In this document: piece after piece, positions 1,886 to 46,457 of the stretch
Position numbering within the stretch: position 1 is the first letter of the stretch
How the letters are laid out: each line of letters begins with the position of its first letter
Virus record (IMG/VR): IMGVR_UViG_3300044614_001341
Location: 50,608 to 114,607 of that record
DNA length: 64,000 nt
Source: a virus
Direction: 5' to 3' (one strand)
Made by a program: the position numbers and the translations under genes
Notes under the pieces: model-generated
What the model saw: only the letters and a program-made list of their open reading frames with translations
Told to the model about the DNA's origin: nothing
The model's database searches: none

Positions 1886-3523
1886 TCAATCAAATCTAGA
1901 ACCAAGGTCAGGTCTTTTTCTTGCTTGCTTAGCAGCATATCTGCCTTCACCCTGCTTACTTTCAGGTTTCGCATAAATTCCACCCGGTTGATCTACGTAT
2001 CTACGACTTGATGCACGTCTTTCCTCTTTTGTTCTACCTTCTTTACCTCTGGTATGAGGATTTTGTCCCCCAGAATAAGAAGTTTGTGGGTTGGCAATTC
2101 CACCAATTTTCGTCTTTTGGCGCTGTCTTTGTGCTCCAGTAGAACCAAGTCCTCTCTTTTCTTCTGCTCTTGCTTCATCAACCATTTCACCTTCTAGATC
2201 ATAAGAACACTTAAGACCAATTGCTCTCAGTTTGTTTTTAGCAAGATTCATAGCAGTTGGAATTGAACGGGGATCCATTTCATCCTGTTCTTTCTTTGCT
2301 TTTTTATCTGCCTGAACAACTGTTTCTTCTTTTACTGGTTTCGTTGGTTTTGTTTTTGCACCCCCAAAAATTTTTTGAACATTTTGCGGAAGTTCATCTA
2401 CAAATTTATAAACCGAAGGTGGAACATTGGGAGCACTTCCACCACCTTTTGGTTCTGCTGCTTCTTTAACATGACCAGGAAGATCTTTGTGCTTGGTCTT
2501 TGCAAATTTCTTTGCTTCTTTCTTACTCATTCCTGCTGCTGCTTTTGCAACTTCTGGAGATGCTGGTTTTGCTCCCTTTTTAGCAGCATAAACCATTCCC
2601 ATAAACTTTTGTTGGGCGGTACTTACTGCCTTTTCTGTAATGAAAGGTCCTTCCATTTCATGATGAGCAACTTGCATATAAGAAGTTGAATTTTTTCCAG
2701 TTCCAGGAACTTCTGGATTAATAGTAATAGAATTCTTACCCTTCATCACATCAATTTTCTTTTGATTTGCATCAGGATTTACTTTTTCATCATTTACTTC
2801 GCCAAGAAATGCTTCCGCAACACCCTTTCTTTTACCAATCGCAGTACTTCTAACTTTTCTACGATTCAGAAGATACTTATCAGTCTTATCGTGGTCACCG
2901 TCATTATCAATGTCCTTATCTTCCTTACCAACTGGGTCTAAACCTTTACCTGCCTTTGCTCTTGCAGTTTGCTCACCTTTCTTTTTTTCACCTTCATAAG
3001 GTTCACCATACCCAGTCATTTCGACAGATTGAATGTTTGAATTGGAACGAAGTGCATTAATCTTTTCGCGGTCAGCATATCTTACATATGAACGACCATC
3101 CTTACCCGTAACTCTTACCTTATATTTTCTATGTTCAGAAGCTTCTAACTTTTCCATATATGTTAGAACGATTGGTTCCTCTTCTTTTTGAACCCCCTCT
3201 ACAAATACCATGTAAAGTGCATTTGCTACATTGGATGAAGCAAATTCTTCAATATTAAATTCTTCTGCTTTCATCCCACCTTTACCAAATAATTTCTGCT
3301 TTACCAGAGTTTTCTCTTGTTGACTCATACTACTGTTTGCAATATATTGTGAATATGCTTGTTGAAGAGGTAACTCTTCTCTTCTAGCACGATAACGAAT
3401 ATCATAAATTGCTTGCTTTACTCTTTTTTCTGGAGATTTACCACCAGCTTCCTTTTTATCTCCAGCAGCAGCGGCAGGAGCGTGTTTTCTTGCTGGAAGC
3501 TCTTCAGCAATATGTTTTTTCAT
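1886..3523 (-). CDS. Lys-rich internal/structural protein with EF-hand-like loop
   Basis: A 545-residue, highly charged, low-complexity protein starting MKKHIAEELPARKHA. Visible modules: a helical N-terminal third; a small basic domain around residues 130-185 (YKVRVTGKDGRSYVRYADRE); an EF-hand/dockerin-like loop at about 204-218 (DIDNDGDHDKTDKYL); a helical KKEAKKFAKTKHKDL region; and a C-terminal tail full of Arg, Gln and Gly. Related proteins are listed as virion structural proteins in T4-like cyanophages. The composition (Lys/Arg/Ala/Gly-rich, disordered) is that expected of an internal head or DNA-associated protein, but I cannot assign a function. Late-type boxes (3552-3563) lie inside the end of the preceding gene. 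Confidence 0.7.
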   Translation of the reverse strand: MKKHIAEELPARKHAPAAAAGDKKEAGGKSPEKRVKQAIYDIRYRARREELPLQQAYSQYIANSSMSQQEKTLVKQKLFGKGGMKAEEFNIEEFASSNVANALYMVFVEGVQKEEEPIVLTYMEKLEASEHRKYKVRVTGKDGRSYVRYADREKINALRSNSNIQSVEMTGYGEPYEGEKKKGEQTARAKAGKGLDPVGKEDKDIDNDGDHDKTDKYLLNRRKVRSTAIGKRKGVAEAFLGEVNDEKVNPDANQKKIDVMKGKNSITINPEVPGTGKNSTSYMQVAHHEMEGPFITEKAVSTAQQKFMGMVYAAKKGAKPASPEVAKAAAGMSKKEAKKFAKTKHKDLPGHVKEAAEPKGGGSAPNVPPSVYKFVDELPQNVQKIFGGAKTKPTKPVKEETVVQADKKAKKEQDEMDPRSIPTAMNLAKNKLRAIGLKCSYDLEGEMVDEARAEEKRGLGSTGAQRQRQKTKIGGIANPQTSYSGGQNPHTRGKEGRTKEERRASSRRYVDQPGGIYAKPESKQGEGRYAAKQARKRPDLGSRFD

Positions 3524-3532
3524 GAGTAAACT

Positions 3533-4849
3533 TTACTTCTTACTTTTTCTATATTTATTTATGAATTGCTTAATATCATATCCCAAATATGCCTTTCCGC
3601 CCGCTTGAAGATTTTCTTTTCCAGTTCCAACTGCACCTGGAGTCATATCTGAAAAATGTTTGAAGGCGCCCAAAGTTCCAGTAAGAGTATTAGGATGAAT
3701 ATTATCTCTCATTTTACGATCCATTCTAACCTCAGTGTATTCTACTAAGTCTTTGATCCAAGACTTGAACATTTGACCAGACTCAGTTACACAAATTAGA
3801 TAGTTGGTGCCTCTACGAATAATACGACCAACTAATCCAGTATTTAAATTTTCAACTTTTTCACCAAGTTTAAAAATAGATTCTGTAAGATAGTTTTCAC
3901 GAAGAGTTTGAAAATCAAACTTAGGTGCAATCTCCCAAATACTCCACCCTTCTTTAACACTCATTGCACCACGAAGGATATTAAAAAGTTCTTTTGCTTC
4001 AGCAGGTTTAACCTCTGGGGGAAGACCTGAACGGAAAGTTTTAAAGTCACCTTCTGCTGCAGCAAGCCTCATTCTAGATGCGGACATTCCTTCTACACCT
4101 TTTGCGTCAGGATCTCTATCTCCAGCAGACATAACTTCAATATTATCGAAGTTATATAATTGACCATTATATTGATTAGAAAGTTTTTCAAACTCTTTAA
4201 CTCTATCTCCACCACCAATAATTCTTACACCAGCATAACCATTATTATGTGCCATTTTTAAGACATCAAAAATGGTTTTAGTATTAGAGTCATTTACAAT
4301 ATTGCCCGCATGATTTGGATAAAACTTTTGCATATAAGCAATCTTTGTATCAGGATCAAGAGGATTCTTTTTCTTATCCTGACTTCTTGAAGGAAAGATT
4401 AGATATTGTCCATCTTTATCTTGAGATGCTGCTTGTGCCGCAACGTCCATTAATTGCTGGTGTCCAATTGTTGGTGGGTTAAAACGACCAAAAGCGACCG
4501 TAAGAGTTCCTTTTGTTTTGGGAACTGGAAGATATCGTGCAGGTGGTTGTTCTTGTGCTGCTGCTTGTTGCTCTGGTGCAGGTGCTTGCTGCTGAACAGG
4601 TTGCTGTTGAAGTTCTGGGTCATTATACCCAGGTGATGCAATTGTTTTTTCTTTTTCAGTTTGTACTGGATCTTTACCACCAACTTTTTGACGCTTATTA
4701 TAAAACTTAAGTTGCCCGCCTTCAGTTTTTGCTACAAACTCTCCTTGCTTATCGTACCAACCACCATGCCCATCTCCAACAAGTCCAAGACGCTGTGCTT
4801 GCTGAGATGCGGTTGCTTCTGTTATGAATTGGAAAAAACTTTTCATCAT
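3533..4849 (-). CDS. Capsid-targeted nucleotidyltransferase-domain protein
   Basis: A 438-residue protein with three parts. Residues 1-12 (MMKSFFQFITEA) closely match the T4 capsid-targeting peptide MKTYQEFIAEA and contain a gp21-type cleavage site (I-T-E before A12). After a Gln/Pro-rich linker (~80-108) comes a HIGH-superfamily nucleotidyltransferase fold: GRFNPPTIGH at 121-130, an IGGGDR segment at ~211-216, and SASRMR at ~256-261 in the place of the usual ISSTxxR signature. The C-terminal ~150 residues hold a KOW-like segment (TGLVGRIIRRGTNYLICV) seen in other marine phage proteins. The family transfers nucleotides to small phosphates (for example NMN or pantetheine phosphate); the substrate here is unknown. 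The targeting peptide suggests packaging in the head and injection. Confidence 0.75.
   Translation of the reverse strand: MMKSFFQFITEATASQQAQRLGLVGDGHGGWYDKQGEFVAKTEGGQLKFYNKRQKVGGKDPVQTEKEKTIASPGYNDPELQQQPVQQQAPAPEQQAAAQEQPPARYLPVPKTKGTLTVAFGRFNPPTIGHQQLMDVAAQAASQDKDGQYLIFPSRSQDKKKNPLDPDTKIAYMQKFYPNHAGNIVNDSNTKTIFDVLKMAHNNGYAGVRIIGGGDRVKEFEKLSNQYNGQLYNFDNIEVMSAGDRDPDAKGVEGMSASRMRLAAAEGDFKTFRSGLPPEVKPAEAKELFNILRGAMSVKEGWSIWEIAPKFDFQTLRENYLTESIFKLGEKVENLNTGLVGRIIRRGTNYLICVTESGQMFKSWIKDLVEYTEVRMDRKMRDNIHPNTLTGTLGAFKHFSDMTPGAVGTGKENLQAGGKAYLGYDIKQFINKYRKSKK
3552..3563 (-). promoter_or_regulatory. Overlapping late-type boxes CATAAATA/AATAAATA
   Basis: The minus strand reads CATAAATAAATA, two overlapping near-matches to TATAAATA, about 30-40 bp upstream of the ATG at 3523 and within the 3' end of the nucleotidyltransferase gene. 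Confidence 0.4.
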
Positions 4850-32455: not shown

Positions 32456-32885
32456 AGTTGAATCCCGATTGGAATCTATGCCATTCCAGAGCATTTTTAA
32501 TTTGGAAAGTTCTATTAGATATACACTTAATAATTTCTTCTAAGAACTTCAACATAATGTCGTAGTATCTTATTTTGAGTTCTACCTTACTTAACTTCTC
32601 ATCACCATCCATATGCCTCTGTAGTGCCTCTTTGTCCCGAACTTTATATGGGAACGGTTCTTCTTCGTAGACCTCTATAGGCGCCTTTCCAGTGTAGTAA
32701 TTGTAACGTTCTAGTTTGACTCTATTAAAAGTCTCTCTTGCCTTTTCACGTAACAAAGTAATTGTGTTATAGATTGTATAATACTTTGAATGAAGTTGAG
32801 GAATTTTTAAAGACTCATCATGTAAATTGTCAGGATCCATAACAGAGTCTCTCTGCCACATCTCCTGGATTTCGTCAAGGTTCAT
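32454..32885 (-). CDS. uvsY: UvsY recombination mediator
   Basis: A 143-residue all-helical protein (T4: 137). It has MNLDEIQEMWQRDSVMD at the start and YYTGKAPIEVY plus KVELKIRYYDIMLKFLEEI in the middle, as expected for UvsY. It displaces gp32 and loads UvsX on ssDNA. It overlaps the upstream structural gene by 4 bp and lies immediately before uvsW, separated by a terminator. Confidence 0.94.
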   Translation of the reverse strand: MNLDEIQEMWQRDSVMDPDNLHDESLKIPQLHSKYYTIYNTITLLREKARETFNRVKLERYNYYTGKAPIEVYEEEPFPYKVRDKEALQRHMDGDEKLSKVELKIRYYDIMLKFLEEIIKCISNRTFQIKNALEWHRFQSGFN

Positions 32886-33427
32886 AAGGGTTGATTATTT
32901 TCATTGAGTATATTGTAGACAGTATACTTGAAAGTAACGTCTGCTGTAAAGTACTGAATGTCAGTTTGTGTGGAGTCAAAATCGAGAGATGATAATGAAA
33001 CTGGAAAAAGATCTTTAAATTTTACAACCGCACTAGTTTTATAGTTACTATTCAGCACATATAAACTTCCATCACTAAATGCTTGTTTAGGATCTAAAAT
33101 ACCATCAGCATCTGTAATTAAATCTTTATACTGCCCTGTTGTCTCTGGAAAACCAAGACCAGTTAACCAATTATGAATTGCCATATAATTTTCCATATTC
33201 TCATCAACGATAAATCTTAAGATTAGATCACCATATTGAATCTTTCCACCAGGAACATCAAGATCCTTTAAGTAAGTTGGTTGTTGTAAAACTGTAAGAT
33301 TTATTTCAGGTATTCTTGCAGAGTTGCAAAAAAATGGAACAGTTGGTTCTTTTGATAAGCTAAACTTGAAACCAACTGGCGATAAAAAATTTCTATTCGT
33401 AATTTGGTTTGGGAAATTACAAGACAT
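32882..33427 (-). CDS. Tail tube-like or tail-completion structural protein
   Basis: A 181-residue beta-rich protein with the tail-tube-family pattern: NFLSPVGFKFSLSKEP, CNSARIPEINL, a GGKIQYGDLILRFIVDENMENYMAIHNWL segment, and a C-terminal ADVTFKYTVYNIL strand. Several T4 tail proteins share this fold (gp19 and the tube-initiator/tail-completion group). In cyanophages a tail-completion gene lies near uvsY, so a gp3-like or tube-initiator-like role is possible. The exact T4 counterpart is uncertain. Confidence 0.7.
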   Translation of the reverse strand: MSCNFPNQITNRNFLSPVGFKFSLSKEPTVPFFCNSARIPEINLTVLQQPTYLKDLDVPGGKIQYGDLILRFIVDENMENYMAIHNWLTGLGFPETTGQYKDLITDADGILDPKQAFSDGSLYVLNSNYKTSAVVKFKDLFPVSLSSLDFDSTQTDIQYFTADVTFKYTVYNILNENNQPL

Positions 33428-33430
33428 TTT

Positions 33431-33961
33431 TTACCTCTTATTGGGTTTTACTTTTGCTGTTTGCGGATTCTGAGCAGTTTTCACGTAAATTGTTCTTTTT
33501 CCAAAATCACTTGATGTAATTTTTGGATTACCTGAAACATCTCGAGCTGTTTGTAATGCCAAATCGTAGTTTGTTGAACGATTATAATCTCCAGCAGGTC
33601 CAAAATTACCAGTATCGGATACTTTAGTTGTTGCAACAGGTGCTTTTGTCCCTGGTGCCATTGTCATTTGCAGCTTTGTACCAAATGGTGCTGAAGGTTT
33701 AGTACTAGTTCTTGATGCATATGGAACGGCAACTAATCTTTGCTTATCATTAAAACGTTCTCCACTTGCTGTCAATGAACCTGGAGTATCTGCTTTACTA
33801 TAAGAACTGACCTTTACAGGTTTCCAACCATATCTTTTTTGTTCAGTATCACTATGAGATCTTGGTGTAAATTTTCCAGTTTTCTTATCAAGAACTCCTG
33901 GTTTATAGTTTTTATATGCCAAAACTTGAGATTCCGATAAAAACTCTCTAAATGTTTTCAT
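33431..33961 (-). CDS. Capsid-targeted RlpA-like (double-psi barrel) protein
   Basis: A 176-residue protein. The N-terminal MKTFREFLSES nearly equals the T4 capsid-targeting peptide, with a gp21-type site after E10 (L-S-E before S). Residues ~70-140 recall the RlpA/3D barrel: GSLTASGERF, LVAVPYA, FGTKLQM, VSDTGNFG and NYDLALQTARD, with the conserved Asp in SDTG. RlpA-like proteins act on peptidoglycan. A head-packaged copy could enter with the DNA or act on the wall during ejection. A CTAAATA box and terminator lie upstream. Confidence 0.65.
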   Translation of the reverse strand: MKTFREFLSESQVLAYKNYKPGVLDKKTGKFTPRSHSDTEQKRYGWKPVKVSSYSKADTPGSLTASGERFNDKQRLVAVPYASRTSTKPSAPFGTKLQMTMAPGTKAPVATTKVSDTGNFGPAGDYNRSTNYDLALQTARDVSGNPKITSSDFGKRTIYVKTAQNPQTAKVKPNKR

Positions 33962-33972
33962 CTTTTTATTTG

Positions 33973-33979
33973 TATTTAG
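33973..33979 (-). promoter_or_regulatory. Late promoter box CTAAATA
   Basis: CTAAATA directly after the U-run of the gp23 terminator, 12 bp before the ATG at 33961. Confidence 0.55.
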
Positions 33980-33981
33980 AT

Positions 33982-34008
33982 AAAAAAAGAGACCCCTAAG
34001 GGTCTCTT
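33982..34008 (-). terminator. Rho-independent terminator after gp23
   Basis: AGAGACCC/GGGTCTCT stem with a short loop and seven T. It ends the prohead/capsid operon. Confidence 0.9.
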
Positions 34009-34027: not shown

Positions 34028-35428
34028 TCACATCAGGTTAGCAACCTTGACTCTTCTGTAGTAGGTGTTTGCATTGGTGGTCAGAGCACCTGCACCTGGG
34101 TTAAGACCCTCAGCGAATGGGTTTGCAACCATTCCATAACGGGTCTTAAAGCCGATCTTAGGCTGGAAGGTGTTCTCGCCAACTGCACGTACCATCTGGA
34201 GAGGTACATATGGGCAATAGAACAGACCAGCATCATATGGGCTAGAACCCTTATAACCGACAACGTAGAACTGGTTAGCAGATACGTTTGCCGAATATGG
34301 GTCAATGTATACGCGATACTTACCTTGGAGAACACCAGCGAAGGTGTTACCGGTATCATCAACGTTCAGGTTAGCGTTGAGTGCAGGGGTGTAATCGAGA
34401 ACACCAGCCATTGCAAGTGCTGAAGCAACGTCAGCGGAGCAAAGGATAGTGTTGCCCTTTCCTCTACGAGTTTGCTGTGCAATTGCGTTTGCATCGCGCT
34501 CGATTTGGAAGATAAGACCCTTGAACTTCTCAACCGACCAACGACCGTTGGAGTCAACGTCGAGGTCAAAAGTACCAGCGGTAGCGGTATTTACTTGAGC
34601 ACCAGGCTTAGCAATCTTGTAGATGGTTCTGATAACTTCGCGGTTGATCTCAGCAAGAATCTCAGTTGAGAGAATATTTGCGAGTTCAGCCTCAGCATTC
34701 AGACCGTGGATTGCCTTGAGGTCCTGAGCAAGCTCAAGTGAGTACTCAGCCTTGAGGGCGCGTGACTTAGCGGTAACGGTGACTTTCTCAATCGAGAATG
34801 CCATCTGGTTAAACGCATCAGATTCGCCAAGCGATTCTGCGTTGTCAGTTCTCATGCCCTGACCGACGTTGTAGATATCAGCGCCGGTAGCGTTAGCAGT
34901 CTGGTTTGTTGGACTTAGAACTGAAGGGTTGAGACCTTGCTGGGCAGTAGTACCCATACCAACAGCACCACTCGTCCATCCTTCGACTTGATCGAACGAT
35001 GCACTCTGACCAGAGAATGCTGAATCTACTTCGTTGTAGAAGGTTTCAGTTCCAGACTGGTTGGTGTAGCGTGAACGCATTGCGAAGATCAGTCCGGTAG
35101 GACCGTTCATTGGTTGAACGCCACAGAGATCATAGGCGATCAGGTTAGGCATCGAACGACGGATCAGTGAGATCAGTACGGGATCGAAACCTTGCATAGC
35201 GCCGGTGCTACCAGCACTAAATCCAGTACCAGCTCCAGTGCTGGTTCCTGTGCTATTAGTTGGTGACTCATAGAGGAACTCGCGCTCTTCGCGGATGATT
35301 CTCTCTTGGTTTTCGAGCAGGATTGCGGTTACAGCTCTACGATGTGAATCTTTGATAGGATCCAGACCGTCGTAGTCTAGGAGCGGTGCCCACTTCTCCT
35401 GCAATTGCTCGGTATTGAACATTTGCAT
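34028..35428 (-). CDS. 23: Major capsid protein (gp23)
   Basis: A 466-residue HK97-fold capsid protein. Recognisable blocks are LIRRSMPNLIAYDLCGVQPMNGPTGLIFAMRSRY, SRALKAEYSLELAQDLKAIHGLNAEAELANILSTEI and the C-terminal AENTFQPKIGFKTRYGMVANPF-type region. A gp21-type site (L-Y-E before S55) lies ahead of a Thr/Gly/Ser-rich stretch, so removal of the first ~54 residues is predicted, close to the 65 removed in T4. Two in-frame ATGs occur at the start; AGAGG precedes both. Confidence 0.98.
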   Translation of the reverse strand: MQMFNTEQLQEKWAPLLDYDGLDPIKDSHRRAVTAILLENQERIIREEREFLYESPTNSTGTSTGAGTGFSAGSTGAMQGFDPVLISLIRRSMPNLIAYDLCGVQPMNGPTGLIFAMRSRYTNQSGTETFYNEVDSAFSGQSASFDQVEGWTSGAVGMGTTAQQGLNPSVLSPTNQTANATGADIYNVGQGMRTDNAESLGESDAFNQMAFSIEKVTVTAKSRALKAEYSLELAQDLKAIHGLNAEAELANILSTEILAEINREVIRTIYKIAKPGAQVNTATAGTFDLDVDSNGRWSVEKFKGLIFQIERDANAIAQQTRRGKGNTILCSADVASALAMAGVLDYTPALNANLNVDDTGNTFAGVLQGKYRVYIDPYSANVSANQFYVVGYKGSSPYDAGLFYCPYVPLQMVRAVGENTFQPKIGFKTRYGMVANPFAEGLNPGAGALTTNANTYYRRVKVANLM

Positions 35429-36677: not shown

Positions 36678-37328
36678 TTATAGATTTGAAAGAAACTGTT
36701 GGAACAATTGTACTTTATGTTCCTGAAGAGTCTTTTCATTAACTAAGGTATTAATTCTACGCTTAGTTGACTCGGCAAGTTTTTCGCGAAGAATTCCTCC
36801 TTCCCAAACCCACTCTTTACCTTCCATAATTCCCTGAACAAAAGCATCAGGAGCAGAGGGATCGGCAACGATATCTGCAGCAGTTGCTAGCATAAAATCT
36901 TCACCAACAATTTTATGACCTTCGTTGGTCATCTTGAGTGAACCAACACCACGAGAAGAAACACCAAGACAAACTCCTTCTTTGATTAAAGATTCTGCAA
37001 TCTTACCCATTGGAGTTCCAAGAAGTTGTGCTTTACCGATGAAATTGGTTCCCTTTTGTTCAAGAGAAACAATTTTATGAGAAACACGGTCAAGATTGAC
37101 GGTAGGACCATCAGGATGTCCAAGTTCTCCAAGAGCACGACCCTTAGAAACAAATGCTTCGTTATATCTTTTTACCTCGCGGGCAAGAGTTTGCATAGGA
37201 TACATTCTTCCATTACGATTGCAAATATCACCCTGAAGGAAAACTCCCTCAATATACATTTTCTTTTCAGCACCTTTTCCTTCGGTGATGAATTTTACTT
37301 GTGAGACTTCTTCTGTGATGAGTTTCAT
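36678..37328 (-). CDS. 21: Prohead core protease (gp21)
   Basis: A 216-residue serine protease (T4: 212). The catalytic His is in GELGHPDGP (H71) and the Ser in GVSSRGVGSL (~124). It cleaves the capsid and core proteins at [LI]xE sites during maturation. Its presence gives meaning to the L/I-x-E sites at the N-termini of the candidate internal proteins in this window. It abuts the beta-rich gene upstream by one base. Confidence 0.96.
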   Translation of the reverse strand: MKLITEEVSQVKFITEGKGAEKKMYIEGVFLQGDICNRNGRMYPMQTLAREVKRYNEAFVSKGRALGELGHPDGPTVNLDRVSHKIVSLEQKGTNFIGKAQLLGTPMGKIAESLIKEGVCLGVSSRGVGSLKMTNEGHKIVGEDFMLATAADIVADPSAPDAFVQGIMEGKEWVWEGGILREKLAESTKRRINTLVNEKTLQEHKVQLFQQFLSNL

Positions 37329-46148: not shown

Positions 46149-46457
46149 TCATTCACTCCACGATAATCTTTCTGGTCTATATCTTTGTGCGTTTTTGATT
46201 TTTATAGAATTAGATTCTATTGGGTATATATTATGAACAATCGCTCCAGGATATTCTCCTTGTAGTTGTTCTGCAAGTTGATTTTTATCCATCATCTTAC
46301 CTTCAACTTGCATACGATATAATCTCCCCTGCCAAACTACATCTGCAAGGAAAGATTCGCTTGCGGTCTCTGGTTGAGATGAATTCATATAAAGATTTCC
46401 ATTGAAATCTCCTGCAATATTAATGCTTTCGGAAATAAACTGTTGAAATGATTTCAT
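46149..46457 (-). CDS. Small protein with capsid-targeting peptide
   Basis: A 102-residue protein starting MKSFQQFISESINIAGDF. The first ten residues match the T4 capsid-targeting peptide, with a gp21-type site after E10 (I-S-E before S). The rest (NLYMNSSQPETASESFLADVVWQGRLYRM and LAEQLQGEYPGAIVHNIYPI) forms one small alpha/beta domain found in cyanophages. It is placed between two structural genes with one-base spacing. It is a strong candidate for an internal protein; activity unknown. Confidence 0.75.
   Translation of the reverse strand: MKSFQQFISESINIAGDFNGNLYMNSSQPETASESFLADVVWQGRLYRMQVEGKMMDKNQLAEQLQGEYPGAIVHNIYPIESNSIKIKNAQRYRPERLSWSE

What the first reader, a model, noticed from the sequence alone, without database searches (positions are those of the whole stretch)
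33431..33961. RlpA-like barrel behind a capsid-targeting peptide
A double-psi-barrel pattern (TASGERF, VSDTGNFG, YDLALQTARD) follows a targeting peptide and lies next to gp23. RlpA relatives act on peptidoglycan, so a wall-active protein released from the head would be unusual.
Basis: partly seen in the sequence, partly recalled or inferred. Interest (0 to 1): 0.65.

Follow-up and report, generated by a model that had tools for sequence, protein, structure and literature searches.

The report
RlpA-like wall protein carrying capsid-targeting peptide
This cyanobacterial virus carries a small cell-wall-type barrel protein whose front end is the short peptide that T4-like phages use to pack proteins inside the head, which suggests a wall-acting protein that is shipped inside the capsid and delivered with the DNA.

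Summary
Window 33431-33961 (- strand, 176 aa, T4-like cyanophage) lies between gp23 and gp3. It starts with MKTFREFLSE, matching T4's capsid-targeting sequence (CTS) at positions 4, 7, 8 and 10, followed by a double-psi barrel. AlphaFold2 pLDDT is 87; Foldseek's best PDB hits are the RlpA-like PA4485 and the wall-lysing hub domain of cyanophage A-1(L). Pfam misses the protein.

A second family in the same gene slot supports the reading: CTS followed by a bona fide DPBB_1/RlpA domain (Pfam E 3e-12). The two families match by profile (E 3e-13; controls negative). Both conserve the RlpA catalytic Asp (D116 here). RlpA genes at other phage loci carry signal peptides or bare starts, not a CTS; one CTS-RlpA subgroup sits among replication genes and keeps its CTS.

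The CTS appears to work in cyanophages: in the published S-CREM2 virion proteome, 5 of 6 proteins with such N-termini were detected (p=0.003, post hoc pattern).

Best reading: an internal head protein, trimmed by gp21, ejected with DNA and acting on host peptidoglycan. Fold and CTS are well supported; wall action is inferred, and the window protein lacks RlpA's conserved His. Novelty: new variant of two known kinds. The gp23-gp3 slot also holds other CTS-headed cargo.

The parts
33431..33961 (-). CDS, 176 aa: CTS + conserved extension + RlpA-like double-psi beta-barrel
33932..33961 (-). capsid-targeting sequence MKTFREFLSE (residues 1-10), predicted gp21 cut after E10 (LSE|S)
33824..33928 (-). 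residues 12-46, extension VLAYKNYKPG...RYGWKP, the most conserved stretch of the long family, of unknown role
   Evidence: dN/dS 0.15
33476..33823 (-). double-psi beta-barrel domain, residues 47-162
33614..33616 (-). codon of D116, invariant in all aligned members, equivalent to the RlpA catalytic Asp
33973..33982 (-). TATCTAAATA, resembles the T4-type late promoter element; repeated ahead of most homologues; only exact copy in the window
   Evidence: promoter reading is inference
33987..34008 (-). intrinsic terminator hairpin after gp23 (stem AAGAGACCC/GGGTCTCTT + T run)
34028..35428 (-). gp23 major capsid protein, with a same-type FLYE|S site at residues 51-55
36678..37328 (-). gp21 prohead protease (Peptidase_S77), the expected CTS-cutting enzyme
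32882..33427 (-). gp3-like tail completion/tube protein, other border of the slot
3533..4846 (-). another CTS-headed protein (MKSFFQFITE|A), cytidylyltransferase; this kind of enzyme is a virion protein in other cyanophages
46149..46457 (-). another CTS-headed protein (MKSFQQFISE|S), phrog_1742, unknown function

Best explanation
The gene encodes an internal head protein. Shown by sequence and model: a T4-type CTS, a gp21-type site L-S-E|S, an RlpA/expansin-type double-psi barrel with the invariant catalytic Asp, and a position downstream of a gp23 terminator and a late-promoter-like element. Inferred: the CTS draws the protein into the prohead core, gp21 cuts after E10, and the freed ~166-residue barrel protein stays in the head with the DNA. 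It leaves through the tail at the next infection and acts on the host peptidoglycan in the periplasm, loosening or cutting glycan around the entry site. That would be a myovirus counterpart of T7 gp16, aimed at the cyanobacterial wall. Probabilities: RlpA-superfamily barrel 0.97; capsid-targeted 0.85; wall action on entry about 0.45.
For: Fold: AF2 pLDDT 87; Foldseek PDB 4avr PA4485 E 1.6e-6, and 8kea A-1(L) hub E 2.9e-6. The matching hub domain lyses Anabaena cells, and mutations of its conserved residues reduce this or the expression level (PMC10966104). Sister family in the same slot: DPBB_1 E 3e-12, PDB sequence hits to 4avr (E 5e-16) and 8kea (E 7e-8), model within 1.6 A of 4avr, profile match to the long family E 2.9e-13 with reversed and shuffled controls negative. 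Catalytic Asp invariant; its loss to Ser inactivates E. coli RlpA (PMC9712689). CTS: positions 4 and 7 kept in 44/44 motif-bearing long-family members and 52/52 short-family members; CTS codons pN/pS 0.23 against 0.67 in the adjacent linker of the short family. RlpA genes at other phage loci carry signal peptides or bare starts, not a CTS. One CTS-RlpA subgroup lies among replication genes and keeps its CTS. CTS-like N-termini mark virion proteins in S-CREM2: 5 of 6 detected against 51 of 218 overall. T7 gp16 is a precedent for a head-stored, ejected wall enzyme (PMC8954989).
Against: No proteome of a phage carrying this gene was found. T4 internal proteins are described as ejected into the cytoplasm, where there is no peptidoglycan. 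The window protein has AVPY where RlpA has AAHK, and its TASG-E is not conserved in its family, so hydrolysis may be lost. Six of 50 long-family members lack the CTS motif, four of them with a DUF3008-like N-terminus. Most long-family members have C8 and many D10; Asp at position 10 blocks processing in T4, so they would need the downstream hydrophobic-x-E (present in most). The S-CREM2 test used a pattern chosen after seeing data (three variants, all reported; the two others gave p 0.05 and 0.09).
Confidence: 0.5

Rival explanations
1. Capsid-packaged, but the barrel acts in the host cytoplasm as a binder or inhibitor (of a protease, defence protein or carbohydrate), as T4 IPI inhibits a restriction enzyme.
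For: T4 IPs and Alt reach the cytoplasm. Double-psi barrels also serve as inhibitors and binders: kiwellin and Streptomyces papain inhibitor are among the fold hits. The long family lost RlpA's His and gained a highly conserved extension.
Against: The RlpA catalytic Asp is invariant in both families, and the short family also keeps nearly all of the AHK...DRGP motif, as expected for a glycan-acting site.
Confidence: 0.27
2. A head assembly or structural protein: the CTS anchors it to the core and the barrel binds gp23, scaffold or DNA; no role in the new host.
For: Lies next to gp23 with its own late-promoter-like element. T4 IPIII mutants affect head shape. Other CTS-headed small proteins use the slot.
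Against: Many close relatives have an empty slot (60 of 141), so it is dispensable. RlpA-type residues would not need conserving.
Confidence: 0.15
3. The N-terminus is not a working CTS; the protein is a lysis or tail enzyme that merely begins with MKTFxxF.
For: Stand-alone phage RlpA proteins are proposed lysis factors (PMC7431792). The A-1(L) barrel is in the tail hub. The short motif is partly degenerate in some members.
Against: No signal peptide, so no route to the wall from the cytoplasm except in a virion. Positions 4/7 conserved, CTS codons under strong constraint, and S-CREM2 virion proteins share the motif.
Confidence: 0.1

Closest known systems
Bacteriophage T4 internal proteins IPI-IPIII (CTS proteins cut by gp21)
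   Same: 10-residue N-terminal CTS with F/Y4, F7, L/I8, E10; gp21 encoded; small protein; dispensable and variable between phages
   Different: Mature part is an RlpA-type double-psi barrel; T4 IPs have no wall-type domain
RlpA / DPBB_1 (PF03330); nearest structure PA4485 (4avr)
   Same: Double-psi barrel, TASG, PFGT and [V/I]xDxG motifs, catalytic Asp; the short slot family passes the Pfam cut-off
   Different: No lipoprotein signal or SPOR domain; CTS instead; the window protein itself gives no Pfam hit, lacks the His, and has an extra conserved N-terminal extension
Cyanophage A-1(L) tail hub gp15, endoglucanase domain (8kea)
   Same: Related barrel in a cyanophage virion, shown to lyse host cells
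   Different: Part of the baseplate hub, not a CTS-headed capsid cargo
T7 gp16 ejection protein
   Same: Wall-acting enzyme stored inside the head and ejected ahead of DNA (functional parallel)
   Different: Unrelated fold, podovirus core protein, no CTS
Stand-alone phage RlpA genes (S-PM2, S-CRM01, S-CREM1, phiM12, OLIVR5)
   Same: RlpA barrel in T4-like and other phages
   Different: Elsewhere in the genome; signal-peptide-like or bare N-termini, no CTS

Membership tests
T4-type CTS internal head proteins | N-terminal CTS with aromatic 4 and 7, L/I8 and E10 | tested here: met
   MKTFREFLSE
T4-type CTS internal head proteins | gp21 protease in the genome and L/I-x-E cleavage site | tested here: met
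   Peptidase_S77 at 36678-37328; LSE|S here, FLYE|S in gp23; cleavage itself not shown
T4-type CTS internal head proteins | Found inside the virion | not testable with these tools
   Only indirect: CTS-headed proteins of S-CREM2 are virion proteins
T4-type CTS internal head proteins | Ejected into the host with DNA | not testable with these tools
   none
RlpA / DPBB_1 (PF03330) | Pfam DPBB_1 match above cut-off | tested here: not met
   Window protein: no hit; the sister family of the same slot does pass
RlpA / DPBB_1 (PF03330) | Double-psi beta-barrel fold | tested here: met
RlpA / DPBB_1 (PF03330) | Catalytic Asp in the [VI]xDxG motif | tested here: met
   D116 invariant; role per PMC9712689
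RlpA / DPBB_1 (PF03330) | Conserved AHK histidine | tested here: not met
   AVPY in the long family; kept in most of the short family
RlpA / DPBB_1 (PF03330) | Export signal (lipoprotein signal peptide) | tested here: not met
   Charged CTS at the N-terminus
RlpA / DPBB_1 (PF03330) | Lytic transglycosylase activity | not testable with these tools
   needs assay
3D domain | Pfam 3D match | tested here: not met
   No hit; one 3D-domain protein is a weaker fold hit

The most novel reading that the evidence does not exclude
T4-like cyanophages replaced the secretion signal of RlpA with a capsid-targeting peptide. The virion head thus delivers a peptidoglycan-acting enzyme through a contractile tail, and the gp23-gp3 junction serves as a loading slot for interchangeable CTS-headed cargo.
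Probability: 0.4. Interest if true: 0.78.

Novelty: new variant of a known kind. Interest (0 to 1): 0.62.

Why it matters
No held paper was found that reports a wall-type enzyme domain behind a capsid-targeting sequence. If true, contractile-tailed phages can use the head lumen, not only the baseplate, to bring wall enzymes, which bears on how internal proteins are sorted between periplasm and cytoplasm. The CTS signature plus the gp23-gp3 slot also gives a simple way to predict packaged cargo in cyanophage genomes; the existing virion proteome of S-CREM2 already agrees.

Tried and rejected
Pfam and PHROGs on the single protein: no Pfam hit, weak PHROG hits. Sequence-profile search of PDB with the long family: nothing. 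Members of the long family in 84,980 bacterial and archaeal genomes: none confirmed, so a cellular source was not found. Considered and set aside: 3D domain (no hit); CTS motif as a generic start of these proteins (8 of 531 background); CTS imposed by the slot rather than the protein (subgroup at another locus keeps it).

Full report
What is there. The window is part of a 114,607-base virus record of a T4-like cyanophage; the nearest named relatives are S-SRM01 and S-SKS1. The finding is a 176-aa ORF at 33431-33961 on the minus strand, between gp23 and a gp3-like protein. Upstream of its ATG are an intrinsic terminator (33987-34008) and TATCTAAATA (33973-33982, the only exact copy in the window). 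Most homologues have the same arrangement with different stem sequences. I read the element as a late promoter by its likeness to the T4 late element; that is inference.

The family. 88 IMG/VR contigs encode relatives, plus the isolates DSL-LC03 and S-PRM1, where the gene also lies between the major capsid gene and the gp3-like gene. The alignment has invariant T64, A65, G67, A78, P80, P89, D116, G118, F120, D133. The single protein has no Pfam hit. The weak PHROG hit is to the profile 'lipoprotein precursor' of 896 positions, at 273-367; by its length and position I take this to be the A-1(L)-type tail hub, whose DPBB stretch is 305-372.

The fold. AlphaFold2 on the window and its IMG/VR relatives gives mean pLDDT 87. 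Foldseek finds PA4485 (4avr), the A-1(L) baseplate hub (8kea), kiwellins and expansins, and many phage RlpA proteins. The A-1(L) hub 'endoglucanase' domain (266-430) lyses Anabaena cells, and mutations of conserved residues reduce this or the expression level (PMC10966104).

The decisive comparison. A survey of the gp23-gp3 junction turned up a second, shorter family in the same slot: MKTFKxF[IM]xEA, then SSYGPGLYGN.TASG...AHKTLPLG...V[IV]DRGPY. It passes the Pfam DPBB_1 cut-off (E down to 3e-12), matches 4avr by sequence at E 5e-16, and its model fits 4avr at 1.6 A. Profile-profile comparison of the two slot families gives E 2.9e-13 with the Asp motif aligned; reversed and column-shuffled controls give nothing.

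The targeting peptide. In T4 IPIII, residues 4 and 7 direct packaging, residues 8 and 10 direct processing, and gp21 cuts after L/I-x-E (PMC9026906). The window protein has F4, F7, L8, E10. Positions 4 and 7 are aromatic in every motif-bearing member (44 of 50 long, 52 of 52 short). [LIM]xE stands at 8-10 in 43 of 52 short-family and 8 of 50 long-family members. Most of the remaining motif-bearing long-family members have C8 and often D10, with a hydrophobic-x-E a few residues on (32 of 36). CTS codons are under stronger constraint than the adjacent linker in the short family (pN/pS 0.23 against 0.67). RlpA genes at other loci of S-PM2, S-CREM1, S-CRM01, S-CBWM1, B23, OLIVR5 and phiM12 have signal-peptide-like starts, and those of S-SZBM1, S-CBP4 and the second gene of DSL-LC03 are bare. 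One CTS-RlpA subgroup sits between regA-like and DNA polymerase genes and keeps its CTS (L221).

Does this peptide mark packaged proteins in cyanophages? The window's other clear CTS proteins are a cytidylyltransferase (MKSFFQFITE|A) and a phrog_1742 protein. A cytidylyltransferase was found in virions of S-SM1 (PMC3037559), S-SZBM1 (PMC9146016) and S-CREM2 (PMC10665884). I matched the S-CREM2 proteome table to its genes. N-termini with F/Y7 and [LIMF]xE at 8-10 occur in 6 of 218 proteins tested (all annotated CDS but the long tail fibre gp85), and 5 of these are virion proteins: SAM hydrolase, APH-like kinase, cytidylyltransferase and two hypotheticals (51 of 218 overall; Fisher p 0.003). Two other pattern variants gave p 0.05 and 0.09. 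The pattern was chosen after looking, so this is support, not proof.

The slot. Of 141 distinct gp23-gp3 junctions, 60 are empty, 19 hold a DPBB gene (17 with the CTS motif), 22 hold other CTS-headed small proteins and 40 hold other genes, including homing endonucleases. S-SRM01 has a 56-aa CTS-headed protein there. The sample is biased to relatives of three gp3 queries.

How it most likely works. Shown: barrel, CTS, conserved Asp, gene arrangement. Inferred: packaging in the core, cleavage by gp21, ejection, and action on peptidoglycan. T7 gp16 is the functional precedent, needed where peptidoglycan is highly cross-linked (PMC8954989). The main doubt is destination: T4 internal proteins are described as reaching the cytoplasm. 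A second doubt is chemistry: the window family keeps only the Asp of the RlpA site, so it may bind or loosen, as expansins do, rather than cut. The highly conserved 35-residue extension before the barrel has no explanation yet.

Verdict. A well-supported new combination of two known kinds; function not tested.

Noticed in passing
L279, L323, L338, L347, L408, L410 (gp23-gp3 junctions): The gp23-gp3 junction holds several unrelated small CTS-headed proteins in different contigs (e.g. MKSFQQFQEDLSKN..., MKTYQQFIESNKTCPKGEYYCHTDKKC...), suggesting a cargo slot.
   Followed up: partly
3533-4846: Cytidylyltransferase with a perfect CTS (MKSFFQFITE|A); this kind of enzyme is found in cyanophage virions, so it is probably head cargo too.
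   Followed up: partly
46149-46457: phrog_1742 protein of unknown function with a perfect CTS (MKSFQQFISE|S), next to the terminase region.
   Followed up: no
L057, L058, L063, L080: Some long-family members carry a DUF3008-like N-terminal module instead of a CTS; a DUF3008 domain also occurs in window protein 1886-3523.
   Followed up: no
L415 3837-5081, 10310-10546 and 10579-12846; L413 39709-40569: In S-CREM2 the virion-associated SAM hydrolase, APH-like kinase, a hypothetical protein and the cytidylyltransferase all start with a CTS-like peptide, which would explain their packaging.
   Followed up: yes
L256 14295-15779 (G000:C1:34295-35779): The same virus record encodes a cyanobacterial-type porin (SLH + OprB, with signal peptide).
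   Followed up: no
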